From contig NC_088295.1 of assembly GCF_032854445.1 (NCBI RefSeq), forward strand, positions 6,572,501-6,636,500: a stretch of DNA of 64,000 nt, written 5' to 3'. The notes under the pieces were generated by a model. It saw only the letters and a list, made by a program, of their open reading frames with translations. It searched no databases and was not told the DNA's origin. Source of the stretch: Liolophura sinensis (Eukaryota > Mollusca > Polyplacophora > Chitonida > Chitonidae). The translations under genes were made by a program, and so were the position numbers. Shown here in pieces: positions 18,101-55,400 of this stretch (positions within the stretch are counted from its first letter, which is position 1; each line of letters begins with the position of its first letter).

Positions 18101-18113
18101 TGCCCATTACTTC
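12195..18113. repeat. Giant 51-bp minisatellite (about 116 copies)
   Basis: The unit contains GGACACAGATATACTGATTT, GTTGTGTATGTGTCC and ATTACATTCAAAGTTA. The period is 17 codons and the unit lacks stops in several frames, so both strands show long spurious frames (over 1,200 codons on the minus strand). Marker variants recur at multiples of 51: CCTAACATTC at 13617, 14841 and 15810; TTAGCACACA at 14141 and 15416; GTTAGAACAC at 13171, 14344 and 15670. This indicates block duplications of roughly 1.0-1.3 kb inside the array. Confidence 0.97.
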
Positions 18114-19325
18114 ATCATAGGGACCACCTAGCTGTGCCTGTCTGTGTTGTGTTTGTATATAGTACCGGAATGCAGACGGTAAATGACAATATCACGTGAC
18201 CATGACTGCCCGGATGGTAGCTAAATCTCTGCCACAGGTCACGCCGCCCTGACTTTCTCAGCAGACTGAAACTGCCTCGACTCTCGCATGTAACTTGACT
18301 GGGCACTAATGTTTACCCACCTGCTCTGTGATTGTGTGCCAGAGGGATTATCACAAACACGGCTGACTCCAATAGGTTGTGACGTCACAGCGCCTCGATA
18401 CCTCAACAGAGGCGTCAGTGCGACCCAGTACCTCAGGTATACTGACGGCAAGTGGAGGTTTTCCCAGGTATCTATGTATGGAGACTCGGACTTCGGAATG
18501 GGAATAAAAACAACCCTGTCCATCAATGAACACATGAGATTGTGTGATAGAAGGCTTACATGTCTGCGTCACTCGTGTTTTGCATGTGGAAAACACTTGA
18601 CTATTGAGACAAATAACGTCTTTTAACAGCATGATTGACATCAGTCATGTTCTGTTGTACAATCCAGCACCAGCATCAGCTCTGAAGTCCAAATCAGTGT
18701 TTAGCTAAGAGCAGGAAACGATTCTAAACCGTGCCATTACAAATGCGAGATCTCTTTTCAAAACTTTATCACAATGCACGTTATGCTTAATAATGAATGG
18801 CAATTGACACGTTTGCCTAGCTGTACTCAAATAAAAAGCTTTCGCACAACCAATTCATGTAAAAAAAAAAACGGACAGCTAAGTCCGGGTCAGCGAGTCT
18901 TGTGACATTCCCAACGACTGTCGACTATTCTTCCAACGCATGTGAATAAACAACTGCCTGCCAGAATTGAATTTGTTTCCTCTTTAGGTCAAAATCAAAT
19001 TTTGCTTTATGAAAGGGTGTGTGTATGATATTTACGCATCTGCACTTACTTCTCCATACTACAGTCAATCAGACCCACATGCATCGCTGCGCACGGTCAA
19101 ACCACCTCCCGTACAGGTGTAGAACACAAGCAGTTGGCTTTGGACTCCGTGAACTGTGCAAACCACCCCAGATCTTTATCACATGCAGCTCAACATGTAC
19201 TATGACATTAACAATATTTACTAGAACTCCCTCCAGACATACTATAATATGGTGGCTACAATATACAGGAAACTTTTCTACAGTAACTGTCCATAACTGT
19301 AGTTAACTACTCTATGTATGGCACA
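18114..19325. other. Unique non-coding stretch
   Basis: No recognisable exon. Overlapping frames on both strands at 18309-18641 show no family features. A CCAAT and a CRE-like TGACGTCA lie close together near 18369-18387 and could be regulatory, but no transcript structure supports this. Confidence 0.5.
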
Positions 19326-28745: not shown

Positions 28746-28927
28746 ATGGCCACACGTTCTCTCTCGCTGCTCCTCGGGCTGCAATTTTACTGCACTGTCG
28801 CCGTATACGGAGAGATCTTCTCCTCTATTGCCAGGCTCCAAAGCTTATACGCCTCTTCCAGCAGTATCCTACAACAACTGGACGACTACATCGGGAAGGA
28901 GGAGGAACGCCTGCAGGTTTTAAGAAG
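28746..28927 (+). CDS. P4HA: P4HA exon 1: signal peptide and N-terminal region
   Basis: Encodes residues 1-60 plus two bases of codon 61. The start ACCATGG has a good Kozak context and gives a hydrophobic leader (LSLLLGLQFYCTVAV) ending near YG|EIF. The rest (EIFSSIARLQSLY, then LDDYIGKEEERL) is the family's N-terminal coiled-coil dimerisation segment. Donor AAG|GTGGGT, phase 2. An upstream in-frame ATG is not seen; the frame opening at 28682 is in another phase. Confidence 0.93.
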
Positions 28928-31900
28928 GTGGGTGTATCTGCAGAGCGACCAGTTAGCTGTGCGGCAATGTTCGTAATCTCCGTCCTCCAGGTCTTATCTA
29001 ACATAGATATTGACAGAGTCAGTCTTGACGGAAACTGAATGTATCAAAAGATACATTTTATGTGGATGTTTTTTGTTAACAATGGTGCAGTAATATTCTT
29101 TTTACATCCAGCCTTTGCGTTGTCCATGCTTAACATATGGACCATCTTTATAGTTGTACGTCGAGAATTCTTTCATAAAACTTGAAAAGTAGATATCAAC
29201 TTACTGAATATTTATTTATGTGTCTGTTTTTAAAGACCAAACTCAAGAATTTCTCACTTATACGATGAGTGTCAGATTGATGGGTGTATTAGCCCACCTG
29301 ATAAGGTGTCAGATGTTAGATTGTTATGTGACAGGCTTTACTTCAGGTGTGAAATTGTCCTGGTGTATGTACATCTATATACATAAAAGCGATAAATAAT
29401 TAATTACACAAGTTTCCGTTAATTATCCCCTGTAAAGTTTACAGCACATATCTCATGTTCCTTAGTTTGTGTGTAGTGTGACTCAGTATGTAATCTGTAT
29501 GGACCAGTCTGTATAGCGACAGATGTGGCCTGTTTTGTACTGTGCGGACTGTAGTCACCAAGTCTTACTGCTGAGATCTTAAAGTGTGAGAAGTCGCTTC
29601 AAACATCTTCCACAGGCATGTGAATCCCCAAAAGGTATTCTCTGTGGAGGAAGTCACAAACTCTCGGAAGGGCTCTTTCACGGCAAACGCCATTAACATG
29701 ATAATATCATTTAATATGTATAAGTATTTCTGACCGAATATGTAAGCAGCGGCGATAATGCTGTGATTGTACAGAATATATTGGGAGTGTCAGGTATGCG
29801 CCACCGACAACTGCATGTATGCTATTTTACATTTCAAGCCCTCTCCTCTGGAAAACAGCCTGTTCAAATTGATTCCTTAAAGGGAAAGAAAGTATGAAAA
29901 CGAAGTGAGCATCAGTATAAAAACATTTAAAACTGTATATGAAAATATCTTAACTCACTTTCAATTTTTTTTCACAAAGGTAAATGCAAGCATATGTTTT
30001 GATAATGTGTTACATGTGGACTTTATGGACTGTATCTAAAATCCACGTCAACACCGACGTCACAGCGACCTTTCTCTGGCCCTAAAACAGGTAATGAATG
30101 TCACACTTGTTTTTTATACACAGAGAGTACAGTTCAAAAGAATTGTATTGAGAACTTAACACAAAGGTGTGGACAAGGTTGTGTTACATACTTCAACACG
30201 GTCGATAAAGCCCTCTATACAATCAAAACATTCAATTTCATTTAAATCTGTGAAAAAAGAATCTGAAAAAATAAGGTATTTACACTGAGTCTTCAATGAT
30301 CTTTTTACTTTATATACTTAATTATAATTTAATTTTTTTTTAAATTCTTTTTAAAGCGTACTCGTACAGTAAGTAAGTGAGCATTTTAACCGTTCTATAG
30401 ATCGATAAAATCTGACAGCTCGTCTTCACTTGTCTTCACTCGTCGTCTTCACTTGTCTTCACTCGTCGTCTTCACTTGTCTTTACTCGTCGTCTTCACTT
30501 GTCTTTACTCGCCTTCACTTGTCTTCACTCGTCGTCCTCACTTGTCTTCACTCGTCTTCACTTTTCTTCACTCGTCTTCACTTGCCATCGTATGAAAATT
30601 CTTGAGTAGTACATTATTAGAAAATTCCAAGATGCAGCTAAAAATTTTTTTCGCCATGACTTCTTCGAAGTGCTATAGAAAAGTCCATAAGGTGGTTAAA
30701 AATATGTGAAAAGTCGGAAGAGGCCATTTACTGCATTGGTTAAATACAACCACAAGAGCGTCAGTTATAACTTAAACCAAATGATAACCCATTTATCAGC
30801 GCAAAGGCACTGGCGATTTGTAACGCCTCCGATGGGAAGCTACTAACTGAGTATTCCCGCGCCGCTCCTGTACATCCCCCCCCCCCCCCCCCCACCACCA
30901 CCTTCATACCCCCCACCCACCCACCCACCGCCCAGCCTCCCTCGTCAACCATCCCCATCCTGACCTGTTGCCCTCTTATGAGGCGTCATTGCACTTACCC
31001 GGAAGTACGGCATTAAATTGGCGCGGATTGATTTATATGTAGATACTCTGCTGCATAATGAACGGGTCAGTATTTGCGCTCGTGGCATTCAGACGGCTCT
31101 TCCTCATAGTATCACAGTCACGTAGGCAAACTCCATCACGAGGTTCTGTAATTAGGGCGCACACAGACACGCATGCGCTTGCAGCTATATTTTCCGACAC
31201 GGTATCAGAAGACGTGTTGAAATCTAACCGTAACGCAGCAAACTGTGTTCTTTTCATTCAACACAGAAATGTGTTACTCCAACACAAACATGTGTAAAAT
31301 AAATGTGAAGTACACATGCTTGTGTTACAAAATAATGAAACACTAACTTGTGAGGTAATTTCTGCAAATACAACATACACTGGTGTATTTTGTATAACAT
31401 CCAATACATCTTGTATTCAATTCTTTCGACACAAGACCTGGTGATAATTCAACACAAAATAGATTTGTTCAAATATGACACAAGACTTTTGTTGCCAAGA
31501 ACACCAGTTTGTTTTCAAACAACGCAAGTGTGTAAGCATATAAGGGTTAGCAAACCAAGCTTATCATCTTTCACCTAATGAAATTAAGTTATTTTTGTCA
31601 TAGATGCGTAAGCCGGATTTCTGCAGCATTTAGCCATTAAACATCAAATATAAACAATTATATAACAACAATATAAACAGCCAAACGGAAATAAGATTGT
31701 CCACATTCTCATCTGTCTGGGGAATTTTACTTTGAAATCCAAGAAGAAAAGTTCATATCCTGGTTAAGTCGTCGCTTCGAGAAATGTTGACTACCAGAGG
31801 CCATCCTGTACAAGAGGCCCCTCAGTCATGTATTTCGTTTATCGAACAGTGAATAGTTCGTATCCTGGTCAAGCCGTCATTCCGAGAAATGTGGACCGCC

Positions 31901-34900
31901 GGAGGCCAACTTATTCAAGAAGCTCGTCGGGTAATGCAAATGAATGGTGCAGACCTACACCAACCCATTGTGCCAGCATCAGTTCACTTATGTGGACAAC
32001 CACCGATGTATTCGACCCTCTCATCATTTACGTTTAGGTCTGTATCATAAGAGAGCAGGATATCGGAACCGTTACATCTGTACAATGTCTAACTAGGAAA
32101 GACGGACGCGGCCACTTATACGTGAACATCCGTGTAAGGATGTGTTTTGACCGTGGGAGGAGCAGAGGTGATTGATTTTAGATTTGGTCAGCATACGAAC
32201 TCAAACAGTTTAAATAATGCATAGGCCGCAGGATTAGCCATTTTTCAGAGCTTTTGATTTAAATAGTCTTGCCTTCTAGAAGACGACATGTTGTATGTTT
32301 TGTGGAATGCAGCATCAGCGTTCATAATAATTTCAATAATAATTCCGAAGGTAAATGAGGGAAATGAAAGGGTCTTTTGGGCAAATGTTTTCACCTGTTT
32401 TGATACTACTAATCCAAAGTTGTGTTCAGACTGAAATCAACTCGAAATAGAATTCCTAAAGACGCCCTGTGTACTCAGTCCATTTTGGGGTACCCAGTTA
32501 CACAATTTCAAAGCGATTCCAGTGCGCTTTCAAAAAGTTTCCGGTTGTTCATTCCCAAAGCGATTTAGATCCCAGTTGGGCTTAATTAGGATTACACTAT
32601 TACCCATACATCGACCAGTGCAAGCTGCATGCGGCTATGCTCCTGATGTCATGAAATGAGAAGCTGCATGCGGCTATGCTCCTGATGTCATGAAATGAGA
32701 AGCTGCATGCGGCTATGCTCCTGATGTCATGAAATGAGAAGCTGCATGCGGTTATGCTCCTGATGTCATGAAATGAGAAGCTGCATGCGGCTATGCTCCT
32801 GATGTCATGAAATGAGAAGCTGCATGCGGCTATGCTCCTGATGTCATGAAATGAGAAGCTGCATGCGGCTATGCTCCTGATGTCATGAAATGAGAAGCTG
32901 CATGCGGTTATGCTCCTGATGTCATGAAATGAGAAGCTGCATGCGGCTATGCTCCTGATGTCATGAAATGAGAAGCTGCATGCGGCTATGCTCCTGATGT
33001 CATGAAATGAGAAGCTGCATGCGGCTATGCTCCTGATGTCATGAAATGAGAAGCTGCATGCGGCTATGCTCCTGATGTCATGAAATGAGAAGCTGCATGC
33101 GGCTATGCTCCTGATGTCATGAAATGAGAAGCTGCATGCGGCTATGCTCCTGATGTCATGAAATGAGAAGCTGCATGCGGCTATGCTCCTGATGTCATGA
33201 AATGAGAAGCTGCATGCGGCTATGCTCCTGATGTCATGAAATGAGAAGCTGCATGCGGCTGTGCTCCTGATGTCATGAAATGAGAAGCTGCATGCGGCTA
33301 TGCTCCTGATGTCATGAAATGAGGATTGATCATAAACTTCCGTCAGTATTTGTGTTACATGTACATACGTTGCTGAGTCACAAAATCAATCTGTCAGGGC
33401 GGCGTTGTTGCATATGAAGTCTAGTTTTGGAAGTAGTTGGTTCCTTCACTATTCTAACAAACTGGCTTACACAAGAGCTTAACAACCTTTAGTTAGAAGT
33501 TACAAGTTGTAACTTGCAACTTCAAACTACAATTATTTTACCTATTCTAGTCTGAAGTTATAAGTTACAAGTTGAACTCATAACTCTTAACGTTTCCATT
33601 AAGGGCAGATATCTTTCCATGTAAGATGACAAGGCGACTGAGAAATGTTGATATTATGCCTCAGTTTGTGATAGTATTCCTAATAGGTGTATCTCGGTGA
33701 CAAGCTAAACATGGAGTTTAACGGTATGATCCTCACAGTGAAATAATACTGCGACTGCAACGATGTGCTGAATGGTAAATCTGGATTCGGAGTCATCAAA
33801 ACGTGCATGTGGTGCGTAATATAAACAGTGGACAAGCGTTACGATGATAGCACGGGACAGGCATTACGATCATCGCACAGGCCAGGCATTACGATCATCT
33901 CGATGTCACACGTAATATAAACACGGGCTAGGCATTACGATTCTCGCACAGGCTAGGCACTACGATCCTCGTACGAGCCAGTCATTTCGATCATCGCAAG
34001 GGCCAGGCATTACGATCATCGCACGGGCCAGGGCATTACGATCATCGCGATGTCACACGTAATATAAAACACGTGCTAGGCATTACGATCCTCGCACGGC
34101 CAAGCATTTCGATCATCGCGATGTCGCACGTAATATAAACACGGACAGACATTACAATCATCGCGATCAACTGAATTCTCATTTGAATGAACGTGGAAAA
34201 CATGTAATATTATGCATTATCACTTACATATCGGGTGATACAGAATCTAAGTCAGATCCCATTTTAAAATGTGACGAATCGATCCGTGATGTATCGAATG
34301 CTGCTGCTCTTATCACTTGCTCTTATCGCTGACATTTTCCCGTTTGTAGGTACTTAATCAGGGGAAGGCATGTGGACACGTGATAAATCTGTGCCTGAAG
34401 CGTAGACGAAACTCCATAATCAGCGAGGGTTGCAAGACCCCAGCCAATCAGCAGTTTTGTCAGTTCAATAACATGGGACTACAGATCGTCCACCTTAACG
34501 CCCATTGCCTGTCAAATAACTTGGCGAAACATATCGGTGGTTGGCAATGTTAAACAAAAACTGTCTATATGTGGACTTAAACTTAGATAAGTAACAAGTT
34601 TTTTTGCAACAGTTTTATTTTGCCACATGTTTATTGTCTTTCTATTTGGAGATCTAAAGTCAAGGTTGCAAGTGCTCCAAAACGAGTCAGATGCGTACTA
34701 CATATGTTACATGTTATCAGATCGATGAGATCTAATGATTTTTATAAAACAGTTGCTGTAACAATATATTCTAATGACCTGCGCGTTGAAACAATTAGCT
34801 ATTCTATCTGTGTTTAAACCTGTTAACGAGCTCGTTCATTTTCAATCAACGAAATGTACGATTGTCGAGTCCTTATTTTATAAGTACCCTTTCTCCAACT

Positions 34901-37900
34901 GAATTGTACACTCACTCTTTTAAAATTAGGATTGCGCGTCTTTTACAGAAAGATTTAAATGAGTAATTCTACATATACTTTTTACTTGTTTAATGTGTAC
35001 AAACATGATTTTTATTGTTTATATGTACATCGCACAGATTATGGCGTATATAAATCGCATTGCACATCGCACAGAATATCGCGTATATAAATCGCATGCA
35101 AATCGCACAGAATATCGTGTATATATAATGTGACCTCCGGTTCCGGCGAAGCCTTTGACGGGGTCAAAGGTCACCTGAGCTAAGACGGAGCTAAGACAAA
35201 GCTTTTTTGCCAATGCGATTTGAGAGTTCACACCCAAATTGCGATGCGATTCAAAAATGCATTTCAAGTGAAGCTCTTCCAAATTGCTTTAAAAACAATA
35301 TACCGTGTAAATTGCTGGACCCCTTTATATCTCAATAAAGCGACTTTGTCCAAAACAGTTCGGCCATCTAGCGATGACTTTTACTCTTCGATATTCCTGT
35401 AGTCTGTTTCTTTTGGAGAGTTGCCTATATTTAGCTGTCTGTAAAATCAGAGACGTAACAACCCAAGCTTTACACACTAAACATGTTGAACGTCCATGTT
35501 ATTACAAAGAAAATGCAGTTAGAACACTTTTTCTAATTCATAATGTTAAATTACATAAACTTAGTTTCAGCTAATGGGCAATGGGCGTGGAGAGTAATTT
35601 GTTTTACAATGGCTGCACCAACAAACTCCACGCAGTAAAAGCTTCCACTTCTATCTCTGCGAACAAACTACATGGCTTTAATTTCCCAACATCCATCTCT
35701 AAATCAGCCCCGCCGTGAGATCATATACTATGAGACATAAAATAAAATTCGTTTATTACGGTTATATCATACTAGAACATGTAAACCTTTTCAAATATGA
35801 CAGCGTCACTACAAAACAGGCATTACAGTTAAGTCCATAGCAGTCTAGGTATAAAATCTCAAAATCCACCATGCAACTGGTTTTTGAATAATTATGCCGT
35901 CACCCGAAGCAGTGGCTTCTTGCCGTCGAAATCGAGTTTATGGGCTTTAACATTATGAATTAGAAAAAGTGTTGTACCTTAATTTTCCTTTCAATGATAT
36001 GGACTTCTAACATATCTGTGTGTAGAGCTTGTGTTGTGACGTATCACTGACCAAAGGCAAATTTGGTTGTGAGTATGACTGATTTTACAGACAGCTGAAT
36101 ATAGGCGACTCTCTAAAAGAAATAGACTACAACACAGGCATTGCAAGGCAGCTTGTGATGTGTTTTAGTCAACTGTAAATTTCCATTTTCCCGAAACATA
36201 TACCGTTGTGAGAATATTGCAGTTCTTCAAGATTGCAGACTGGCTGTTACTTTTTGTGTACATCAGCAGGCATGCAGTGTAACAGACTCGGACTTGTTGA
36301 CTGTTACAGATTGACTATATATATTTGCTATGGGTTTTTGTCATTTTCAGCATTATTGTGGAACATTATGTTAGCATATATTTGTGAACGGCTTCAGATA
36401 TTGATTATGTGTATGTTTAACATATATTTGTGAACGGCTTCAGATATTGATTATGTGCATGTTTAACATATATTTGTGAACGGCTTCAGATATTGATTAT
36501 GTGTATGCTTAACATATCTTTGTGAACAGCTTCAGATATTGACTATGTGTATGTTTAGCATATATTTGTGAACAGCTTCAGATATTATGTGTATGTTTAG
36601 CATACATTTGTGAACAGCTTCAGATATTGATTATGTCTATGTTTAGCATATATTTGTGAAGAGCTTCAGATACTGATTATGTGTATGTTTAACATATATT
36701 TGTGAACAGCTTCAGATGTTGATTACGTGTATGTTTAGATTATATTTGTGAACAGCTTCAGATATTGATTATGTGTATGTTTAGCATATATCTGTGAACA
36801 GCTTTAGATATTGACTATGTGTATGTTTAGCATATATTTGTAAACAGCTTCCGATATTGATTATGTGTATGTTTAGCATATATTTGTGAACAGTTTCAGA
36901 TACTGATTACGTGTATGTTTAGCATATATTTGTGAACAGCTTCAGATATTGATTATGTGTATGTTTAGCATATATTTGTGAACAGCTTCCGATATTGATT
37001 ATTTGTACGTTTAGCATATATTTGTGAACAGCTTCAGATATAGATTATGTGTATGTTTAGCATATATTTGTGAACAGCTTCAGATATTCATTATTTGTAT
37101 GTTTAGCATATATTTGTGAACAGCTTCAGATACTGACTATATGTATGTTTATGTTTGTTTGCAGTATTCGCGAAGAGGTGTCTGCTCTGCAGGACATCGC
37201 TCCGGACACCGGTCTGACCGTTCCGGAACATCCGATTGGAGCTTACCATATGATCAAAGCTTTATCTCACCTCAACCAGACCATATCCACAGCAACGGTC
37301 AGCACAAACGGTTAGTATTCTTCAAATGTTTTGTAACACACGAGAACTTTTTTCGTAGGTATAGCAAAATAGTTCAGTTTTAAGCTACAATCGAAGCCTT
37401 GAGCTATTTTTCATGTATGATGAGCGGAAAGCCAAAGAGGGTAGGAAATTTTAAAGTCATCCACGAGAGGCGATATATTGAGACGTATGTTTGATATGAT
37501 TCAGAAAGTATGGGATGTTAGAAAACTTAACCGCATGCCGGCAAAGAACTTCTTAGGTTAGAGCGAGGGGACGTTACTCTTGTATCCATTGTGGAAAACT
37601 CCGTGATGAAACTAAATGGTGGCTAAAGTAAAGACAGAAATTCCTCACTCTGGATCGTGTACTATTTTTATGATTTTCAACCCCAGAGTCAAACACAGAT
37701 AACCATTGCTTGAAATTTTCTTTAGATAAGGAAGACTAAAACATAACTAGTGAATTCTGTTCTACATGTTAATTTTGTTGTCTTTGGCTAAAATATTGCC
37801 GAGGATAAGTTAGGACATTCAATCAGTCAAACATTCATGTAATTGATTCTGTTTTCAGTCTTTCAGTCTTACCTACAAGCCCTCAGCCAACCATTACCCA

Positions 37901-40900
37901 GTGAGTCAGATTTCCGCGGTGCCATCAGTGCCATACTCAGACTGCAAGCCATTTACCGGCTTCCCACACACGATCTTATGGAGGGCATGGTCAGAGGTAA
38001 CACGGCAAAAAGATTGAATCCCAGCGACGCTGTTGCCATTGCTAAAATCGCCAGGAAAAGTACCAATTACCGTCACTTGACAGTAGAATGGTTGAAGGAA
38101 GCTTATGAGGCGTACGTAACAAGACGAGAGCAGTCAGGGTTAGATCTAAAGGTTCATCTCCTTAACATCACCAAAGAATACATACAGGTAAAGTGAAAAC
38201 ACAATACACACAGGTAAACTGAAAACACACAGGTAAAGTGGCAACACAATACACACAGGTAAAGTGACAAAACGACACACACAGGTAAAGTGACACCACA
38301 ATACATACAGGTAAAGCGGCAACACAATACACACAGGTAAAGTGACAACACGACACACACAGGTAAAGTAACAACACAATACACACAGGTAAAGCGGCAA
38401 CACAATACACACAGGTAAAGTGACAACACGACACACACAGGTAAAGTAACAACACAATACACAAAGGAAAAGTGACAACACAATACACACAGGTAAAGTG
38501 ACAACACAATACACACAGGAAAAGTGACAACACAATACACATAGGTAAAGTGACAACACAATACACACAGGTAAAGTGAGAACACGACACACACAGGTGA
38601 AGTAACAACACAAAATACACAGGTAAAGTGACAACACAATGCATACTGGTAAAGTGACAACACGGCACACACAGGTAAAGTAACAACACAATACACACAG
38701 GAAAAGTGACAACACAATACACACAGGTAAAGTGACAACACAATACACACAGGTAAAGTGACAACACGACACACACAGGTAAAGTAACAACACAATACAC
38801 ACAGGTAAAGTGAGAACACGACACACACAGGTGAAGTAACAACACAAAATACACAGGTAAAGTGACAACACAGTGCATACTGGTAAAGTGACAACACAGT
38901 GCACACAGGTAACGTGACAACACAATATATACAGGTAAAGTGACAACACAATACATACAGGTAAAGTGACAACACAATACATACAGGTAAAGTGACACCA
39001 CAATACATACAGGTAAAATGACAACACGACACACACAGGTAAAGTGACAACAAAACACATATAGGTAAAGTGACAATAAGATACATACAGGTAAAGTGAC
39101 AACACGACACATACAGGTAAGTGACAACACAATACATACAGGTAAAGTGACAACAAAACACATACAGGTAAAGTGACAGCAAAACACATACAGGTAGAGT
39201 GACAACAAAACACATACAGATAAAGTGACAACAAAACACATACAGGTAAAGTGACAACAAGACACATACGGGTAAAGTGAAAACAAAACACATACAGGTA
39301 AAGTGAAAACAAAACACATACAGGTAAAGTGACAATAAAATACATACAGGTAAAATGACAACAAAACACATAAGGTAAAGTGACAATAAAATACATACAG
39401 GTAAAGTGATAACAAAATACATACAGGTAAAGTGACAATATTATACCTGCTGCAATTAAACTAAGAACAAGTTGTATGTAGGTAAACAGAAAATAAAATA
39501 CGCACACGTAAATTCACTCAAACTACCTACCAGTAATACCACCAAAGACATTTAGGTGAAATGACACAAAAACACACACAGGTAATCGCCAACAAAATGT
39601 ACATGGTAGTAAAGAGATAACAAAATGCATCAAACATCATAAAATAAGTGTTAAAATAATGTGAAATAGTAGCTAGCTAAAACGACATTAAAATACCTAC
39701 TGATAAAACATAAATAAAGGAAATTTGGCGGCAAAATATATTCTAACCACATAATGTAGACAGTAAAGCTAATAACGGAACATACAGATGAAACGACAAC
39801 AAAGATGCAAAGGGGTAAACTGACCATAGAGAAATGAAAACAGTGAAGACATGAACATATGCATGTATCAACAGACATACAGATAATAGTGTAAACAACA
39901 ATACAAACTGGACATGTTTGTTATGGTTTTTATTAAGATGCATATTTGTTGTCTCATTTCAGTATTCGGACTGGATGAATGCATGGTTGTATGTCAACAA
40001 AGCCAAGGAGACATGTAAGTGTTAGTGTAATGCCCATCATGACATCGGAGGTGAGCGCTTGTTATCGAGGCTCACCCCTATCATCTGAGTGTAAAGCTCA
40101 GTCATAGGCTCCTCCCATACCATACCATCATAGCTTAGAGCTCTGCCATAGATCCCTCCCACATCATGTTATCATAGCTTAGAGCTCTGCCATAGGTCCA
40201 TCCCACATCATGTTATTATAGCTTAGAGCTCTGTCATAGGTCCCTCCCACATCATGTTATCATAGCTTATAGCTCTGCCATAGGTCCCTCCCACATCATG
40301 TCATCATAGCTTAGAGCTCTGCCATAGATCCCTCCCACATGATGTCATCATAGCTTAGAGCTCTGTCATAGGTCCCTCCCACATCATGTCATCATAGCTT
40401 AGAGCTCTGCCATAAGTCCATCCCACATCATGTTATTATAGCTTAGAGCTCTGCAATAGGTCCCTCCCACATCATGTTATCATAGCTTATAGCTCTGCCA
40501 TAGGTCCCTCCCACATCATGTCATCATAGCTTAGAGCTCTGCCATAGGTCCCTCCCACATCATGTCATCATAGCTTAGAGCTCTGCCATAGGTCCCTCCC
40601 ACATCATGTCATCATAGCTTAGAGCTCTGCCATAGGTCCCTCCCACATCATGTCATCATAGCTTAGAACTCTGCCATAGGTCCCTCCCACATCATGTCAT
40701 TATAGCTTAGAGCTCTGCCTTAGATCCCTCCCACATCATGTCATCATAGCTTAGAGCTCTGCCATAGGTCCCTCCCACATCATGTCATCATAGCTTAGAA
40801 CTCTGCCATAGGTCCCTCCCACATCATGTCATTATAGCTTAGAGCTCTGCCTTAGATCCCTCCCACAGCATGTCATCATAGCTTAGAGCTCTGCAATAGG

Positions 40901-42856
40901 TCCCTCCCACATCATGTTATCATAGCTTAGAGCTCTGCCATAGGTCCCTCCCACATCATGTCATCATAGCTTAGAGCTCTGCCATAGGTCCCTCCCACAT
41001 CATGTCCTGAGCTTAGAATTCCGCCATAGGTCCCTCCCAAATCAACTTATCTGGATTTATAGCTATGTCATACATCCCTCCCACATCATGTCACCATAGC
41101 TTAGAGCTCTGCCATGGGTCCCTCCCACATCATGTTATCATAGCTTAGAGCTCTGCCATAGGTCCCTCCCAGATCATGCCATCATAGCTTAGAGCTCTGC
41201 CATAGATCCCTCCCACATGATGTCACCATAGCTTAGAGCTCTGCCGTAGGTCCCTCCCACATCATGTCATCATAGCTTAGAGGCCTGCCTTAGGTCCCTC
41301 ACACATCATGTCATCATAGCTTAGAGCTCTGCCATAGGTCCCTCCCACATCATGTTATCATAGCTTAGAGCTCTGCCATAGGTCCCTCCCACATCATGTC
41401 ATCATAGCTTAGAGCTCTGCCATACGTTCCTTCCATATCATACCATCATTGCTTCGTCCACATTATGCGATCTGAGCTTAAGCTGTCATATGCCAAGCCC
41501 ACATCATGTCCTGAGCTTAGAATTCCGCCATAGGTCCCTCCCACATCATCTTATCTGGATTTAGAGCTATGTCATACATCCCTCCCACATCATGTTGTCT
41601 AATGTCTGTACTCAAAGATACTGCTGTAGGATTCGTACAGCCACTTGATGTTTGTGTTCCCCTTGTGGTCCCGCATTATGAGGAAATGGCGTTTGTACTC
41701 AAGGACATATATACATGTAGATTTTGTACATTCACGTAATGTCTGTTTGCCTTGTAGACCCACATTATGGGGAAGTGGCGTCTGTACTCAGGGATATGTC
41801 TGTAGATTTTGTACACTCACGTAATGTCTGTTCCACTTATAGACCCACACGATGACGAGGTGATGTTGGTATACAGAGACATTGAGGGCACAATAAAGCA
41901 CGCGACGACGGTTGGTCTGAGCCTCCACAGCTTCCACGGAGCTCCAGGATATAGCGAAGACGGCTGGTGGAAAAACTATAGCTCACTGTGTCGTGGGGAC
42001 CAGGACGCAGTACGTATATCTGTTACATGTACCTCCACGACGGCGCTGTGTCGTGGGGACCAGAACGCAGTATGTATATCTGTTACATGTACCTCCACGA
42101 CGGCACTGTGTCGTGGTGACCAGGAAGCAGTTCGTATATCAGTTTCATGTACCTCCACGACGGCGCTGTGTCGTGGGGAACAGGACGCAGTACGTATATC
42201 TGTTACATGTACCTCCGCCACGGTACTGTGTCGTGGGGACCAGGACAGTACGTATATCTGCTACTGTCTCTGTTACCTCCTCCACGGTGCTATGTCGTCG
42301 GGACCAGGGCAGAGAATCTGCATCCGTTATCAAGGGGTTGATGATATAAACGGCGTTTCTTCGTGTGCGTGCCTAAAATATTAGAGTAACAATCTGGTGT
42401 CCCAGATTTCAAACGACTGATAAGTTAATATGGTCTTTGCCTCCCTCAGATAACGTCGAATTGGAAAAGCTCATTCTGTAGCCTGACTCCCACATCTATC
42501 CCGTTTTCGCCGGTAAAGACAGAAGTCCTGAGCACTCGACCATTCATCGCAATATTCCACGATGTTCTGAGCAACTCCGAGGCGATTAAATTTAAATCTG
42601 AAGCCTTCAACATGGTAAGCATGAGCAGTGGGGAGTAGGGGTATATTAACGATTGATCATTCTATATATATGTTGAAAACGTACAACAGAAGAGAGGACA
42701 CTGAACACCGGTTTTTGTTCACGGCAAATTTGTCCATGATGTGACGGTCGTTGGTTTACTCCAGGCACTCCGGTGACTCCGGCATATAAGTGAAAACTTC
42801 CTGGCCCTGGTGGTAAACACAAATCATATAAATAAATAAATAAATAAATCAATCAA

Positions 42857-42891
<35 letters not shown>

Positions 42892-45800
42892 AAAATAAAT
42901 AAATAAATGAATATGTAGATATATCTAGGACGTGACACATTTCATGTGTCTTCAAGACGACAGGCAGCCAATGTGGATCGTGACAAACTGTTTTCACAGA
43001 AAACTTCTACTTGCGCATCAGTCAAAGTTTCTGATCACTGTAATCGCCACGATGTGGTCGAAAATATTGCCTACGTGGCGTTAAGCCACTCTCATTCATT
43101 CACCCTTTACTGCAAATTATTCCAAAGGACATCGCCATTAGCTAAATTGATTGATCAGTCATAAGGGAGGACTCCCTTTAAACTATCTCATCTAATCATT
43201 TGCCGTACTCAGCTCCTCCGTGCCAATGTGGGGGACCCTGGTAAAGGGTTTGTATCGGAGGCTCGAGTCGGCCAGCTGTAAGTTATGTCGTTATGGCTTA
43301 ATGGAACGGTAGCGTCTGGTCTGCGATTCCTTCCTTTGTAGTTTGTCGGTGATTGGATGGATAGTAACGTTACATAGTCCACAAAACATAGCTTTTGTAG
43401 ATCGTGGTAAACTGGATTTGTTTGTAGGAGACGGTGATGGTTGACTCGTTCGTTATCAGAGAAATATCACTGACTGATGTGGCTGGGCATCGGGGCACAT
43501 GGCAGAGAGTCAGTTGGTCTGTTAGGGAAATGTAGAAAGTACTTGTTTGCTGCATATGTAACTTTCATTGCCATTAGCTAAACTGATTGATCAGTCATAA
43601 GGGAGGACTCCCTTTAAACTATCTCATCTAATCATTTGCCGTACTCAGCTCCTCCGTGCCAATGTGGGGGACCCTGGTAAAGGGTTTGTATCGGAGGCCC
43701 GAGTCGGCCAGCTGTAAGTTATGTCGTTATGGCTTAATGGAACGGTAGCGTCTGGTCTGCGATTCCTTCCTTTGTAGTTTGTCGGTGATTGGATGGATTG
43801 TAACGTTACATAGTCCACAAAACATAGCTTTTGTAGATCGTGGTAAACTGGATTTGTTTGTAGGAGACGGTGGTGGTTGACTCGGCGTTATCAGAGAAAT
43901 ATCACTGACTGATGTGGCTGGGCATCCGGCACATGGCAGAGAGTCAGTTGGTCTGTTAGGGAAATGTAGAAATTACTTGTTTGCCGCATATGTAACTTTC
44001 ATTCTGTACGTCGTCAATAGCAACGTGCATGTTGCACGTCAACATTAGCATCGTGACGTTACCATGACACCGCGAATTTTCTTTCTGTAGATTCTGTGCC
44101 GTTATAACAAAGCTACTATCTTAAACTATTGTGTCAGATTTTTACTTTTGGCCCCGAAGTTTGCTTCCTATAATTGAACAGATGGTTGAATTCACCAGCT
44201 CGTTCACGCTTCGAAACGGCGCCACGTAACAAACCACACATCATTCCCTATTCATTCAATATCACTGATAATTCGATTAAAACTTTTAATTTGATGACAG
44301 TATCATTTTCGCTGATGGTTCCGCTCGTAATAACACACTGTTGAAGAATATTAGCAAAGCTATAGTGTGTGTTTTCCGTAATGTCTTATTCCATTCATTT
44401 GTAGTAAGTACAACTTAATGTGCATGACATAATTTAAGATGTTTTCTATTGTACAGTACCTGGCTTTACGATACAAATCCAAATGTTCATAAGATATCTC
44501 AACGGGTGATGGACATAACGGGACTGGACGTAACCATAAGAAATAACTTATCCAGCTCAGAGCCATTTCAGGTGCGTGAAACCTTCTACGCCAACAACAG
44601 GCGTATGTAGGTCTAGTTTATATGTTTTTATTTCCTAATATTAAAAGAATTAAGGGGCCTCCGTGGCTCAGTTGGTTAGCGCGCTAGTGAAGCGTAATGA
44701 CCCAGAAGGCTCTCACCAATGCGGTCGCCGTGAGTTCAAGTCCAGCTCATGATGGCTTCCTATCCGGCCGTACGTGGGAAGGTCATTCAGCAACCTGCGG
44801 ATGGTCGTGGGTTTTCCCCAGGCTCTGCCCGGTTTCCTCCCACCATAATGCTGGCCGCCGTCGTATAAGTGAAATATTCCTGGAGTACGGCCTTAAACAC
44901 CAATCAAATAAATAAATAAATAAATAATAGAATTAATATTTTATAACGACTCCGTTTTTTCGTTTTGAATTTGAAAAATATGTTAGCACTATATTTGGAA
45001 AAATGATACCGAGTTTTCGTCTTTCAGGTTGTTAATTACGGAATCGGTGGACAATATGAACCACATTTTGACGTCTACGCTGTAAGTAGTGGCTTATGCT
45101 TGTCTCTGTGTCTAGGCTAATTTCGGGTTTGGTTGGGGGAGGAGGTGGGGTCATAACCGAATTTCCAAACATCGAATCCGGGAAGCATGAGTGAGTGAGT
45201 GAGTGCATGGGCTTTAACGTCGTACTTAACAATTGTTCAGTCATGACGACGAAGGAATCCTTAGAGTGCATGTAATGTGCCTCCTTGTTGCAGGACAGAT
45301 TTCCACCGCTCTTTTATCTAGTGCTGCTTCACTGAGACGCCTTACCGAAGGCAAGTAAGCTGCCCCGCCCGAGACATTATACTGATACGGGTCAACCGTT
45401 GCACTATCCCCTTCATGCTGAACACCAAACGAGGAAGTTACAACTTCCTCTTTTAAGGTCTTAGGTGCGACTCGGCTCGGGATTGACCCTGGAACTACCA
45501 GGGGATTTTAGGGATTTAGCTAGCAGGATTTCTCCTGGACGCCGCATTTTAAGTTTGTTAAAATGTGTGTTGCGCCCTGTATATTTCGAGTCTATTAAGT
45601 GACGTGTACATATAGATTGTGACATGGTGTCTGGATGTACTTGTAGCTATAGAATGCTTATATACTGTTAATCAACGCTGGGTGCGTATAACTTTAAGTT
45701 TTTTCCAGTGTGTCTTTAAGACTTTTTGATGTAGACAGTAGGCTACATAATGTTGTGGAAGAAATCGTGAGTTATGCCCCCTTTTCTTCGCAGGACAGAT

Positions 45801-47179
45801 CTGCCTTGTTGGATCTTCCCTCGTTTCTGAAAGGCAGTGGAGAGCGGCTTGCTACTTTTCTCTTCTATGTAAGTAGACTACTTGAAGCTAATGTTATTGA
45901 TCATGCATTTTTTGTCTCCAGTACGTTTTTCACGACCACTGCTTACCATGGATTTGGTGTGTCTACCGGTGTCCAGGGTTTCGGGACAACGTAATATCTC
46001 CTGTGTAGAGCCTGTCCAGAGATTTGAGAGTACTTCTTGTCGTATGGGAATTTGTCAGGTTAATACCTCGCGCACTAGAACACGTGTAAGTGATCTCTGA
46101 ATGCTTTCTCCCTTTCAGCTCAATGATGTTACCGAAGGGGGCGCCACTGTATTTCCCACGGCAGGAGTGAGAGTTCCGGCTATCAAGGTTTGATAATTCC
46201 TGACACTTACCGTATTCTGTCTTTGATAAGGCGTATACATTCGTGTGAACACAGAGAGAAGCATTAGTAACTCTTACTCATCCAAAACCGGGTACCAGTT
46301 TTAGTGGATTTGTTTGGGTTAGAATCTCAGACTGATGATAAAGAAATGGTAAATATTTTCTGTTTAATCAGAATAGCGCCGCGTTTTGGTACAACCTATG
46401 GCGGTCCGGTGAGAATGATCCGATGACACTTCACGCCGGATGCCCTGTCTTGCTTGGCCAGAAGTGGGGTAAGTTGACATGGCTCCTCCTTACAGATAGA
46501 GCTCCTCCCCGCAGACAGGGCTCCACCAAGCCAGATCCTCTTTCCAGACAGGGCTCCTTCATTTTTTATAAGGTTCCTCATTCCAGACAGGTTTACCCTT
46601 TCCATACAGAGCGCCTCTTCGCAGCTAGAGTCCCTCTTTCCTTGCGAGGGCTCTGGTTGTGTAAGCCTGTCAATGCTTTCTTTCAAGGTCCACAAGCAAT
46701 TGACCAATTAGGTTCCTGGTTCGGATCCAGTTTCCGTTGTTTCCTGCTGTGGTTTTACGTCCACAGGTTTATCAGGTATAACCAACGAAGTGTGGTGCTT
46801 CTCCGGTCGGGGTCTGTGTCGGGTTCCCTCCCCTCGTGTCCTTGGCCACCATGGTCGTAATTAAAATGTACATTCTATTTAACAGCACTATACATGACAC
46901 ACTGCATCATGGAGAGATAATTCTGCAGATAAAAACAATACTTTGTCCAGCACTACAGTAAATCGCACTGATATTGAGTAGATCATAGTGTGGTTAGTAG
47001 ATGGTTTCAGAACGTTTCCTTTTTTAAACATACAGTATCTGTTGTCTTCTTTGTTTTCGCTAGTTGCTAACAAATGGATACGAGAGCACGGTCAGGAATT
47101 CCGCCATAGCTGCGGTTCTCACCCAGACTCGGTACATCATGAGTTCCCTGAACACCGCTGGGTCATGAATAGGGCTTGA
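28746..47179 (+). CDS. P4HA: Collagen prolyl 4-hydroxylase subunit alpha, complete gene of 13 coding exons
   Basis: Catalytic subunit that hydroxylates X-Pro-Gly prolines of procollagen in the ER lumen with Fe(II), 2-oxoglutarate, O2 and ascorbate, paired with protein disulfide isomerase. Joining exons 28746-28927, 37165-37310, 37859-38187, 39963-40014, 41843-42009, 42450-42614, 43213-43277, 44457-44571, 45028-45081, 45794-45868, 46119-46187, 46372-46468 and 47064-47179 gives 1,632 nt and 543 residues with all phases matching; vertebrate subunits are about 530. Signal peptide is about residues 1-22, the peptide-substrate domain about 110-236 and the dioxygenase domain about 340-530. Iron ligands are His420, Asp422 and His494; Lys504 should bind the 2-oxoglutarate carboxylate. 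Probable disulfides are Cys286-Cys302 and Cys497-Cys522; N-glycosylation sites Asn98, Asn212 and Asn281. There is no KDEL, as expected because the partner retains it. Exon 7 has a second copy at 43649-43713. Introns are rich in minisatellites seeded from splice junctions. Confidence 0.95.
28928..30410. other. P4HA intron 1, first part
   Basis: Non-coding; AT-rich unique sequence with no recognised elements. Confidence 0.6.
30418..30590. repeat. CTTCACTCGT/CTTCACTTGT short repeat
   Basis: About 17 copies of a 10-bp unit alternating CTTCACTCGT and CTTCACTTGT, with some CGTC insertions, inside P4HA intron 1. Confidence 0.9.
30878..30935. repeat. Poly-C and CCA/CCAC low-complexity tract
   Basis: A run of about 15 C followed by CCACCACC and CCCACCCACCCACC. 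Runs of C on this strand make the other strand G-rich, with potential to form G-quadruplex structure. Length is prone to sequencing error. Confidence 0.9.
30936..32620. other. P4HA intron 1, middle part
   Basis: Non-coding. 31240-31520 has many alternating ACACA and TGTGT words in inverted pairs. 31750-31935 shows a diverged direct duplication (CATATCCTGGTTAAGTCGTC and GTATCCTGGTCAAGCCGTC), about 105 bp apart. Confidence 0.55.
32622..33323. repeat. 39-bp near-perfect minisatellite (18 copies)
   Basis: The unit contains AAGCTGCATGCGGCTATGCT and CCTGATGTCATGAAATGAG. Only a few substitutions occur (GGTTATG at two places, GGCTGTG at one). This near identity marks a recent expansion inside P4HA intron 1. 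Confidence 0.97.
33324..33809. other. P4HA intron 1, spacer with small inverted repeats
   Basis: Non-coding. 33490-33590 has repeated and inverted AGTTACAAGTT / AACTTGCAACTT words with potential to form hairpins. Confidence 0.5.
33810..34165. repeat. ~25-bp degenerate tandem repeat
   Basis: Units with GCCAGGCATTACGATCATCG and CAC, interspersed with CACGTAATATAAACAC spacers that recur at about 33829, 33908, 34055 and 34127. This suggests a compound repeat. Confidence 0.85.
34166..35027. other. P4HA intron 1, unique stretch
   Basis: No features recognised. Confidence 0.5.
35028..35130. repeat. Short tandem repeat, about 3 copies
   Basis: ATCGCACAGAATATCGCGTA and TATAAATCGCAT occur three times with small differences. 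Confidence 0.85.
35393..36142. mobile_element. Foldback-type inverted-repeat element
   Basis: Two inverted arms of about 185-225 bp, at 35393-35580 and about 35915-36142, flank a loop of about 340 bp. For example GAGAGTTGCCTATATTTAGC on the left pairs with GCTGAATATAGGCGACTCTC on the right, and TTTTTCTAATTCATAATGTT pairs with AACATTATGAATTAGAAAAA. Arms are diverged but collinear. No transposase frame is present. It lies in P4HA intron 1. A non-autonomous DNA transposon is the likeliest explanation. Confidence 0.75.
36370..37160. repeat. 46-bp minisatellite abutting the exon 2 acceptor (about 17 copies)
   Basis: The unit contains GCATATATTTGTGAACAGCT, TCAGATATTGATTATG and TGTATGTTTA. It runs right up to the exon 2 splice acceptor. 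The unit phrase TATTTGTGAACAG resembles the exon 2 start TATTCGCGAAGAG (10 of 13 identical), each preceded by a GTTT..AG-type end. Confidence 0.95.
37165..37310 (+). CDS. P4HA: P4HA exon 2
   Basis: Encodes residues 61-109. Acceptor GTTTGTTTGCAG|TATTCG, donor AACG|GTTAGT, phase 2 in and phase 1 out. Contains VPEHPIGAYHMIKALSHLN, equivalent to the family's conserved GHPVNAFKLMKRL-type segment, and a glycosylation sequon at Asn98. Confidence 0.93.
37311..37858. other. P4HA intron 2
   Basis: 548 bp of unique sequence ending in GATTCTGTTTTCAG. No elements seen. Confidence 0.85.
37859..38187 (+). CDS. P4HA: P4HA exon 3: peptide-substrate-binding domain
   Basis: Encodes residues 110-219. AISAILRLQAIYRLPTHDL matches the family's ALLRLQDTYNLDT-type helix at the start of the TPR-like proline-rich peptide-binding domain. 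A second helical pair (AIAKIARKSTNYRHLTVEWL) corresponds to the family's tyrosine-rich groove. Donor ATACAG|GTAAAG, phase 0. If this donor is skipped, the intron reads GTA AAG TGA, an immediate stop. Confidence 0.95.
38176..39440. repeat. 26-bp minisatellite built from the exon 3 splice donor (about 48 copies)
   Basis: Each unit is AATACACACAG followed by GTAAAGTGACAACAC, that is, the last 11 bases of exon 3 joined to the first 15 of intron 3. The first unit is the functional junction (boundary 38187/38188). Most units keep CAGGTAAAG; some have GAAAAG, GTGAAG or GTAACG. Long minus-strand open frames here are repeat artefacts. Confidence 0.96.
39963..40014 (+). CDS. P4HA: P4HA exon 4
   Basis: Encodes residues 220-236 (YSDWMNAWLYVNKAKET) plus one base. 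Acceptor CTCATTTCAG, donor ACAT|GTAAGT, phase 0 in and phase 1 out. It continues the helical substrate-binding region. Confidence 0.85.
40105..41600. repeat. 44-bp minisatellite in P4HA intron 4 (about 33 copies)
   Basis: The unit contains ATCATAGCTTAGAGCTCTGC, CATAGGTCCCTCCCACATC and ATGTC. Blocks of several units recur (for example the CTCTGCCTTAGATCCCTCC variant near 40713 and 40845), showing block duplication. The last units, after about 41440, are degenerate. Confidence 0.95.
41625..41880. repeat. 85-bp triplication of the exon 5 acceptor region
   Basis: Three successive 85-bp units each contain the acceptor context and the beginning of exon 5. Unit 2 (CTTGTAG|ACCCACATTATG) and unit 3, the real one (CTTATAG|ACCCACACGATG), keep AG. 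Unit 1 has CTTGTGG instead. GTAGATTTTGTACA recurs at 41717 and 41802. Confidence 0.85.
41843..42009 (+). CDS. P4HA: P4HA exon 5
   Basis: Encodes residues 237-292 and ends ..YSSLCRGDQDA, equivalent to the family's YEMLCRGE motif whose Cys (286 here) forms the first conserved disulfide. Phase 1 in, phase 0 out. The donor is GACGCA|GTACGT, and it is repeated downstream in frame. I chose the first donor because it matches the family length; see the 60-bp array for alternatives. Confidence 0.88.
41986..42325. repeat. 60-bp repeat of the exon 5 end plus its splice donor (about 6 copies)
   Basis: Units begin CTGTGTCGTGGGGACCAG at 41986, 42046, 42106, 42166 and 42226, with a sixth degenerate one near 42289. 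Donors follow at 42010 (GTACGT), 42070 (GTATGT), 42130 (GTTCGT), 42190 (GTACGT) and 42248 (GTACGT, shifted by a 3-bp deletion). 60 bp is 20 codons and no stop interrupts the frame. Confidence 0.95.
42450..42614 (+). CDS. P4HA: P4HA exon 6
   Basis: Encodes residues 293-347, phase 0 at both ends, acceptor CTCCCTCAG, donor CATG|GTAAGC. ITSNWKSSFCSLTP supplies the second Cys of the first disulfide (Cys302). RPFIAIFHDVLSNSEAIKF is the family's PRIIRFHDIISDAEI-type lead-in to the dioxygenase fold. Confidence 0.92.
42735..42912 (+). mobile_element. SINE-A-like diverged 3' end with long AAAT tail
   Basis: CCGGCATATAAGTGAAAAC, a TGGTAAACACAAATCAT end and more than 20 AAAT units. It lies in intron 6. 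The body upstream is too diverged to assign confidently. Confidence 0.6.
43213..43277 (+). CDS. P4HA: P4HA exon 7 (copy a)
   Basis: 65 nt encoding LLRANVGDPGKGFVSEARVG.. (residues 348-368 plus two bases), equivalent to the family's RLSRATVHDPETGKLTTAQYR segment. Acceptor CCGTACTCAG, donor CAGCT|GTAAGT; phase 0 in, phase 2 out. Confidence 0.88.
43649..43713 (+). CDS. P4HA: P4HA exon 7 (copy b), alternative duplicated exon
   Basis: Identical to copy a except for one synonymous change (GCT to GCC), with the same acceptor and donor. Because 65 is not a multiple of three, using both copies would shift the frame; only one can be used per functional mRNA. It is either a mutually exclusive partner or a silent duplicate. 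Confidence 0.85.
44457..44571 (+). CDS. P4HA: P4HA exon 8
   Basis: Encodes the split codon 369 and residues to 407 (TWLYDTNPNVHKISQRVMDI, then TGLDVTIRNN). It matches the family's AWLSGYENPVVSRINMRIQDLTGLD segment. Acceptor TATTGTACAG, donor TTTCAG|GTGCGT; phase 2 in, phase 0 out. Confidence 0.95.
44654..44928 (+). mobile_element. SINE family A, full length, in P4HA intron 8
   Basis: Complete head (TGGCTCAGTTGG A box, GAGTTCAAGTCC B-box-like), body and AAAT tail. AGAATTAA at 44646-44653 and 44929-44936 is a probable 8-bp target-site duplication. It is in the sense orientation relative to the gene. Confidence 0.93.
45028..45081 (+). CDS. P4HA: P4HA exon 9: HxD iron-binding motif
   Basis: 54 nt, residues 408-425, VVNYGIGGQYEPHFDVYA. 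His420 and Asp422 are the first two Fe(II) ligands; the family's YGxGGxYxPHxD signature is intact. Acceptor TCTTTCAG, donor GCT|GTAAGT, phase 0. Confidence 0.97.
45187..45505 (-). mobile_element. SINE family B, near full-length, in P4HA intron 9
   Basis: On the minus strand: tRNA-like remnant with GGGTCAATCCCGAGCC, ACCTAAGACCTTAAAAGAGG, TTGACCCGTATCAGTATAAT, then GACTGAACAATTGTTAAGTA and CGACGTTAAAGCCC, ending in an (ACTC)n tail. Antisense to the gene. Confidence 0.85.
45794..45868 (+). CDS. P4HA: P4HA exon 10
   Basis: 75 nt, residues 426-450, ending GSGERLATFLFY, the family's GNRIATWLFY beta strand. Acceptor TCTTCGCAG, donor TAT|GTAAGT, phase 0. Confidence 0.96.
46119..46187 (+). CDS. P4HA: P4HA exon 11
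   Basis: 69 nt, residues 451-473, LNDVTEGGATVFPTAGVRV.., the family's MSDVSAGGATVFPEVGASV strand pair. Acceptor CCCTTTCAG, donor AAG|GTTTGA (weaker than its neighbours), phase 0. Confidence 0.96.
46372..46468 (+). CDS. P4HA: P4HA exon 12: distal His and 2-oxoglutarate Lys
   Basis: 97 nt, residues 474-505. FWYNLWRSGENDPMTLHAGC and PVLLGQKW hold His494 (third iron ligand), Cys497 and Lys504 (2-oxoglutarate C5 carboxylate). The ten-residue His-Lys spacing is that of the family. Acceptor TTTAATCAG, donor TGGG|GTAAGT, phase 1 out. Confidence 0.97.
47064..47179 (+). CDS. P4HA: P4HA exon 13 and stop codon
   Basis: Residues 506-543. VANKWIREHGQEFRHSC is the conserved C-terminal helix with Cys522, the partner of Cys497. 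The tail after it (about 20 residues, His-rich) is longer than in vertebrate subunits and not conserved. TGA at 47177-47179. Confidence 0.95.
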
Positions 47180-55226: not shown

Positions 55227-55400
55227 ATGGTGTCGTTACCGATCTTTGTGGTGCTGACGGGCCTGGTGGGCCGGCTACACGCGGAGTTGTTTTCTTCCAC
55301 CGCCCGCTTGGAAACGCTGTTCGATTCCCACAATGAAGATTGAACAGATCCTGGATATTTATGTCCAGCAGGAGGAGTCCAGGTTGGCTTCAATCAGGAG
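55227..55400 (+). CDS. P4HA: First exon of a second P4HA paralogue, with a 1-base frameshift
   Basis: ATG at 55227 sits in GCCATGG and opens a signal peptide (MVSLPIFVVLTGLVGRLHA) followed by ELFSSTARLETLFDSHN, clearly like the N terminus of the complete P4HA 26 kb upstream (EIFSSIARLQSLY). The frame then stops (TGA at 55341), but the family continuation (IEQILDIYVQQEESRLASIR) is present one base out of frame and ends at a donor, AG|GTATGT, in the same phase 2 as the first gene. Alignment of the two exons places one surplus base in GAAG at about 55335-55339. Either an assembly error or a disabled paralogue. No exon 2 was found in the remaining 8.6 kb; the first gene's intron 1 is 8.2 kb, so it may lie beyond the window. 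Confidence 0.85.

What the first reader, a model, noticed from the sequence alone, without database searches (positions are those of the whole stretch)
28746..47179. Splice-junction-seeded minisatellites as a general mode in this gene
At least three, perhaps four, independent arrays in one gene (exon 2 acceptor, exon 3 donor, exon 5 acceptor and donor), plus a whole-exon duplication, have units that include an exon-intron boundary. One case could be chance; several suggest a shared mechanism, for example template switching or R-loop-linked breakage at splice sites, or selection for redundant splice signals. I know of no named class for this. It is my main candidate for something undescribed.
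Basis: inference. Interest (0 to 1): 0.85.

Follow-up and report, generated by a model that had tools for sequence, protein, structure and literature searches.

The report
Minisatellites that copy splice junctions
In a chiton collagen-modifying enzyme gene, three repeat arrays are built from units that include an exon-intron border; the same thing occurs at other genes of this genome and has a name from amphioxus ("mirages"), so it is a known kind of repeat seen in another animal group, most simply a by-product of random tandem duplication.

Summary
The gene is a collagen prolyl 4-hydroxylase alpha subunit (543 aa) in an assembly whose statistics match the chiton Liolophura sinensis. Three of the four claimed arrays span a splice junction: exon 3 donor (26-bp unit, ~48 copies), exon 5 acceptor (85 bp) and exon 5 donor (60 bp). 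The exon 2 acceptor array stops 13 bp short and shows no exon similarity: rejected. The ~440-bp exon 7 duplication is real. The class is already named: "mirages" in amphioxus. I tested generality on 226 exons from four protein families: 15 of 452 exon edges carry a straddling array by the mechanical rule, 11 after reading, against 4.1-5.7 expected if founding units land at random. So it is general here, with a weak, model-dependent excess. The junction sits anywhere in the unit, array ends show no clear peak at it, and genome-wide donor-word arrays give no consistent excess. The neighbouring paralog has an array whose unit spans the stop codon, where there is no splice junction. Best reading: ordinary tandem duplication in a minisatellite-rich genome; units overlapping an exon edge survive because one copy stays functional and the rest become intron or UTR. 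A splice-specific mechanism, or selection for spare splice sites, is not excluded.

The parts
28746..47179 (+). Collagen prolyl 4-hydroxylase alpha subunit gene (13 exons + duplicate exon 7), coding span
   Evidence: GT-AG exon model with clean 543-aa frame; Pfam PF08336 and PF13640
38177..39438 (+). Minisatellite, 26-bp unit, ~48 copies, straddling exon 3 donor (exon 3 ends 38187); 35 GT sites, the real donor counted in, score at least as well as the real donor
41604..41849 (+). Minisatellite, 85-bp unit, ~2.8 copies, straddling exon 5 acceptor (exon 5 starts 41843); copies carry a degenerate start of exon 5
41984..42264 (+). Minisatellite, 60-bp unit, 4.7 copies, straddling exon 5 donor (exon 5 ends 42009); open in frame with exon 5 throughout
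36367..37151 (+). 46-bp minisatellite in intron 1, stops 13 bp before exon 2 acceptor; NOT junction-spanning
43130..44003 (+). Two tandem copies of a ~440-bp block holding exon 7 (43213-43277 and 43649-43713, 65 nt each); including both breaks the frame
30420..35125 (+). Four intron-1 arrays that touch no junction (30420-30584, 32622-33323, 33815-34164, 35023-35125)
40095..41454 (+). 44-bp minisatellite inside intron 4, not junction-spanning

Best explanation
These are mirage-type minisatellites made by ordinary tandem duplication. In this genome short segments (about 25-140 bp in the cases seen) are duplicated and then expanded at a high background rate. Founding segments fall more or less anywhere. 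Those wholly inside exons are removed by selection; those in introns are tolerated; those that overlap an exon edge are also tolerated, because the copy next to the exon keeps the working splice site and all further copies are read as intron. The result is an array anchored at the junction and growing into the intron, with many spare splice sites. Shown: the arrays, their registers, their occurrence in other genes, the spread of junction positions in the unit, and one stop-codon case without splicing. Inferred: the duplication process, the purging inside exons, and that the exon-proximal site is the one used.
For: All three P4HA arrays extend into the intron from the exon edge. The introns are most simply older than the arrays: read by eye, the tandem paralog has the same exon 3 donor, exon 5 acceptor and exon 5 donor positions without arrays across them. 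Window array coverage is 37.4% against 10.7% and 6.9% in the samples, so several hits in this gene are less surprising. Array ends, both sets pooled: 0.62/kb in the last 25 exonic bases, 0.44/kb in the first 25 intronic, 0.27-0.66/kb further into introns (loci with several exon hits are counted once per hit). Exonic share of the unit runs 0.22-0.93 over 14 arrays (values entered by hand) and does not differ from uniform (KS P = 0.45). Paralog B: a 77-bp unit spans the end of the coding sequence and the stop codon; 46-bp ungapped match, 0 of 500 shuffles.
Against: Observed straddlers exceed the uniform-seeding expectation: 11 of 452 kept (15 by rule) against 4.1-5.7; P for 11 is 0.003-0.03. In the first set the last 25 exonic bases have the highest density of array ends of all bins (0.93/kb, 6 ends). 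Splice dinucleotides are better kept in the units than other positions: 6 of 274 mismatched against 359 of 5558 (permutation P = 0.036; Wilcoxon P = 0.005 over 13 arrays) and against 49 of 880 for the same dinucleotide elsewhere in the units (Fisher P = 0.022). P4HA itself is above the sample (3 of 26 against 11 of 452, P = 0.035). Only one stop-codon case was found, and such edges were not searched for systematically.
Confidence: 0.7

Rival explanations
1. Selection keeps or favours junction-spanning arrays because extra copies of a splice site back up the real one or allow alternative exon ends.
For: GT/AG in the units are less often mutated than other positions (6 of 274 against 359 of 5558). 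The exon 5 donor array is open in frame, so longer exon 5 forms would be translatable. Weak excess of straddlers.
Against: The conservation signal rests on few mismatches and is marginal in the permutation (P 0.036-0.039 with all arrays, 0.053 without the exon 3 array). Use of a later exon 3 donor meets a stop at the third added codon. No RNA data.
Confidence: 0.13
2. A splice- or transcription-linked mutational process (template switching, R-loop breakage at junctions) seeds duplications at splice sites.
For: About 2- to 3-fold excess over random seeding. 9-base donor word: 238 spaced triples for 9807 single occurrences against 85 for 4854 for the backward word.
Against: No clear pile-up of array ends at the junction in the pooled sets. 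Junction position in the unit is spread evenly. 7-base donor word triples are fewer than the backward control, 1361 against 1799. A stop-codon-spanning array in paralog B.
Confidence: 0.1
3. Arrays are new introns in the making (intron gain by tandem duplication of AGGT segments).
For: This route is proposed for amphioxus globins (PMC3087553, passages) and described for a potato gene (PMC4974935, abstract).
Against: The introns concerned exist at the same places in the paralog, which lacks arrays across these junctions.
Confidence: 0.03
4. Isolated coincidence in one gene.
For: P of 3 straddled boundaries in this gene is only 0.014-0.050 and the gene was picked after seeing it.
Against: Straddling arrays found in myosin, p450, ABC and SNF transporter genes chosen without regard to repeats.
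Confidence: 0.02

Closest known systems
Mirages in amphioxus (Adh3, globins BflGb6/BflGb9, troponin C, PGBD5)
   Same: Minisatellite-like tandem duplications whose unit spans an exon-intron boundary, at donors and acceptors, many (not all) units keeping AG/GT (PMC3087553, passages; PMC3902484, passage). The original Adh3 paper (2002) is not held and was not read.
   Different: Here a mollusc; up to ~48 copies; three junctions in one gene; sampled at 226 exons. No splicing or haplotype data.
Internal tandem repeats at exon-intron boundaries of human segmental-duplication genes
   Same: Minisatellites at exon-intron boundaries altering exon or intron length (PMC2812944, passages).
   Different: Recent primate paralogs, with transcript support; the passages do not say that the unit itself spans the boundary.
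[quoted passage not shown]
   Same: Duplication crossing an intron-exon boundary (PMC4974935, abstract).
   Different: There a new intron results; here the introns appear older than the arrays.
CeRep25B minisatellite near alternative splicing regions in C. elegans
   Same: Minisatellite associated with splicing (PMC4039745, abstract).
   Different: A named repeat over-represented near alternative splicing regions; not described in the abstract as copied from local junctions.

Membership tests
Mirage minisatellites | Tandem unit spans an exon-intron boundary | tested here: met
   Three junctions in P4HA and 11 kept cases in sampled exons
Mirage minisatellites | Both donor and acceptor boundaries affected | tested here: met
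   P4HA 2 donors and 1 acceptor; kept sample cases 7 donors and 4 acceptors
Mirage minisatellites | Unit length like the published cases (10-72 bp Adh3, 150-160 bp globins; a description, not a limit) | tested here: met
   26 and 60 bp in P4HA and 31-66 bp in the sample lie in the Adh3 range; 85 bp in P4HA and 91-140 bp in the sample lie between the two published ranges
Mirage minisatellites | Many units keep AG/GT | tested here: met
   6 of 274 dinucleotide bases mismatched in 14 arrays
Mirage minisatellites | Normal splicing preserved | not testable with these tools
   No RNA data
Mirage minisatellites | Length instability between haplotypes or in soma | not testable with these tools
   One assembly only
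Intron gain by tandem duplication | Intron is younger than the duplication | tested here: not met
   Same intron positions in paralog B, read by eye, without arrays across them
Dispersed satellite family | Unit present at other loci | tested here: not met
   Exon 3 array, two joined units: 20 of 20 matches lie in this array; the other units were not searched

The most novel reading that the evidence does not exclude
In chitons junction-spanning minisatellites are a pervasive genome feature (a few percent of exon edges) that is over-represented 2- to 3-fold beyond random duplication, with splice dinucleotides kept by selection in the spare copies, so that many introns carry tandem reserves of working splice sites.
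Probability: 0.15. Interest if true: 0.75.

Novelty: new member of a known kind. Interest (0 to 1): 0.42.

Why it matters
In the papers seen, mirages are described from amphioxus genes. Seeing such arrays at roughly 2-3% of sampled exon edges in a mollusc (11 to 15 of 452) suggests they are a general outcome of minisatellite-rich genomes, and gives many natural cases in which several near-equal splice sites compete, useful for asking how the exon-proximal site wins. It also warns gene predictors: such arrays hold many plausible exon ends.

Tried and rejected
Exon 2 acceptor array as a fourth case: rejected. My first hand-drawn exon borders broke the frame and were corrected. Random placement of whole arrays as the null was rejected by reasoning, because arrays grow by insertion; I used founding units, with the smallest and the largest period and collapsed intron length. 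Genome-wide donor-word test: the 9-base word favours donors (238 triples for 9807 singles against 85 for 4854), the 7-base word does not (1361 against 1799 triples; singles of the 7-base word not counted), so inconclusive. Of 15 arrays that met the mechanical rule (score >=100, >=6 bp on both sides; recounted) I set aside four after reading them: L062 and L072 (two copies, exon end unsure), L119 and L175 (true donor unsure). L022 (5 bp) failed the rule; L051 scored under 100. The first sample kept hits with stop codons inside (28 of 129; three of the 11 kept arrays, L016, L067 and L091, are of this kind); the second used stop-free hits only. P values were computed for 11 and 14 cases, not for 15. 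Literature: searches for mirage or boundary-spanning repeats listed amphioxus, human and plant work on the subject; 'minisatellite, splice sites, intron, mollusc, tandem repeats' (12 of 55 listed) and 'chiton, minisatellite' (8 of 8 listed, all on Theileria parva) listed no molluscan mirage by title and abstract start; open-access library only. PMC3862624 (conotoxin gene structure, passages) speaks of intronic microsatellites, not of this.

Full report
What it is. The span is one gene. Its 13 exons plus a duplicated exon 7 splice at GT-AG into a clean 543-aa frame ending at 47179, with the P4Ha_N and 2OG-Fe(II) oxygenase domains of collagen prolyl 4-hydroxylase alpha. The assembly (609,464,459 bases, 632 contigs; contigs of 96,433,062 and 37,343,639 bases) fits the table for the chiton published as Liolophura japonica (609,495,693 bases, 632 scaffolds, longest 96,433,062, N50 37,343,639; PMC11068029, passages), since corrected to L. 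sinensis (PMC12441733, whole text).

The arrays. Three arrays straddle a junction. At the exon 3 donor a 26-bp unit repeats ~48 times; its first copy holds the last 11 exonic bases and the donor, and 35 GT sites, the real one counted in, score at least as well as the real donor. Two joined units occur nowhere else at up to 3 mismatches (20 of 20 matches in this array), so it was most likely seeded locally. At the exon 5 acceptor an 85-bp unit carries the acceptor and a degenerate start of exon 5: 44 of 65 bases match in register against a mean of 16.4 (sd 4.5) over the registers tried. At the exon 5 donor a 60-bp unit contains 26 identical exonic bases, and the frame stays open through the array. 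The fourth claim fails: the intron 1 array ends 13 bp before exon 2 and the exon start does not resemble its unit. Exon 7 lies in a tandem duplication of about 440 bp, 97.5% identical; including both copies breaks the frame.

Chance in this gene. With 9 arrays of score >=100 and 26 boundaries, random founding units would straddle 0.50-0.82 boundaries; 3 are seen (P 0.014-0.050). The gene was chosen because of the pattern, so this alone is weak. The window is also rich in arrays: 37.4% of bases.

Generality. I took the 81 Myosin_head exon hits and 48 p450 hits drawn at random (five near-full-length single-frame hits of the 99 were left out first), then a second set of 37 stop-free ABC_membrane hits (of 49) and 60 of 73 stop-free SNF hits (of 109). 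Each was fetched with 480-550 bp on either side. By the rule (array score >=100, >=6 bp on each side of the refined splice site) 15 of 452 edges are straddled: 10 of 258 in the first set and 5 of 194 in the second. The rule was written down before the second set was fetched, after the first had been seen. After reading, 11 are kept, 8 and 3: L050, L055, L016, L067, L091, L049, L007, L026; L178, L123, L110. Random founding units predict 4.1 (smallest period) to 5.7 (largest period); P for 11 is 0.003-0.03 and for 14 it is 0.0001-0.002. The first set alone gives P 0.006-0.053 for its 8 kept cases; the second, with its 3 kept cases, is not significant (P 0.17-0.23), with all 5 it is 0.015-0.027.

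Mechanism tests. In the pooled sets array ends number 0.62/kb in the last 25 exonic bases, 0.44/kb in the first 25 intronic and 0.27-0.66/kb further in. The sets differ: the last-25 bin is the highest of all in the first set (0.93/kb, 6 ends) and ordinary in the second (0.21/kb, 1 end); counts are small, and loci with several hits are counted more than once. The exonic share of the unit ranges 0.22-0.93 in 14 arrays, consistent with uniform (P 0.45). Together this speaks against breakage aimed at splice sites, without excluding it. Splice dinucleotides in the units carry fewer changes than other positions (6 of 274 against 359 of 5558; permutation P 0.036; 0.053 without the exon 3 array; Wilcoxon P 0.005 over 13 arrays). 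That is a hint of selection, or of recency and homogenisation; it is marginal. Genome-wide, triples of CAGGTAAGT number 238 against 85 for the word read backwards, while singles are 9807 against 4854; for GGTAAGT triples are 1361 against 1799. Matches are clumped by array, so these counts are not independent events, and the result is inconclusive.

The paralog. A second P4HA gene follows in tandem, with exon 1 near 55275 in the window and most of the rest beyond it. Read by eye, its exon 3 donor and exon 5 junctions lie at the same protein positions without arrays across them, so these introns are most simply older than the arrays. Its last exon runs into an array with a 77-bp unit that includes the end of the coding sequence and the stop codon (46-bp ungapped match, 0 of 500 shuffles). 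This has the same anatomy with no splice site involved, as expected if any edge between constrained and free sequence can anchor an array. It is a single case.

Known or new. [quoted passage not shown] Tandem repeats at human exon-intron boundaries are also described (PMC2812944, passages). I found no molluscan report in the searches named under Tried and rejected. I therefore file this as a mirage in another animal group. Splicing behaviour and length instability could not be tested.

Verdict. Real, general in this genome as far as sampled, and already of a named kind. The simplest account is random tandem duplication filtered by selection on exons. A 2- to 3-fold excess and the well-kept GT/AG leave some room for a junction effect.

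Noticed in passing
L002:4761-5506 (C1:6647661-6648406), paralog B last exon: Minisatellite (77-bp unit) whose unit spans the end of the coding sequence and the stop codon: same anatomy as a mirage but at a coding/UTR edge.
   Followed up: partly
43130-44003: Tandem copy of exon 7 (65 nt, frame-breaking if both are used). Human P4HA1 has mutually exclusive exons 9a/9b (PMC11868403, passages); that they are the matching exon is my recollection, not tested.
   Followed up: partly
55275-55398 and on into L001/L002: Tandem P4HA paralog B with its own intron arrays, including a different minisatellite in intron 3.
   Followed up: partly
1-64000: 41 array clusters cover 37.4% of the window, against 10.7% and 6.9% of the sampled exon neighbourhoods; the longest single array is 12199-18114 (51-bp unit, 116 copies).
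   Followed up: no
41984-42264: The exon 5 donor array is open in frame with exon 5 and would encode repeated LCRGDQ-type segments if retained.
   Followed up: no
44650-44920: Segment that looks like a tRNA-derived SINE followed by an ATAA tail (by eye, label from recall; not searched).
   Followed up: no
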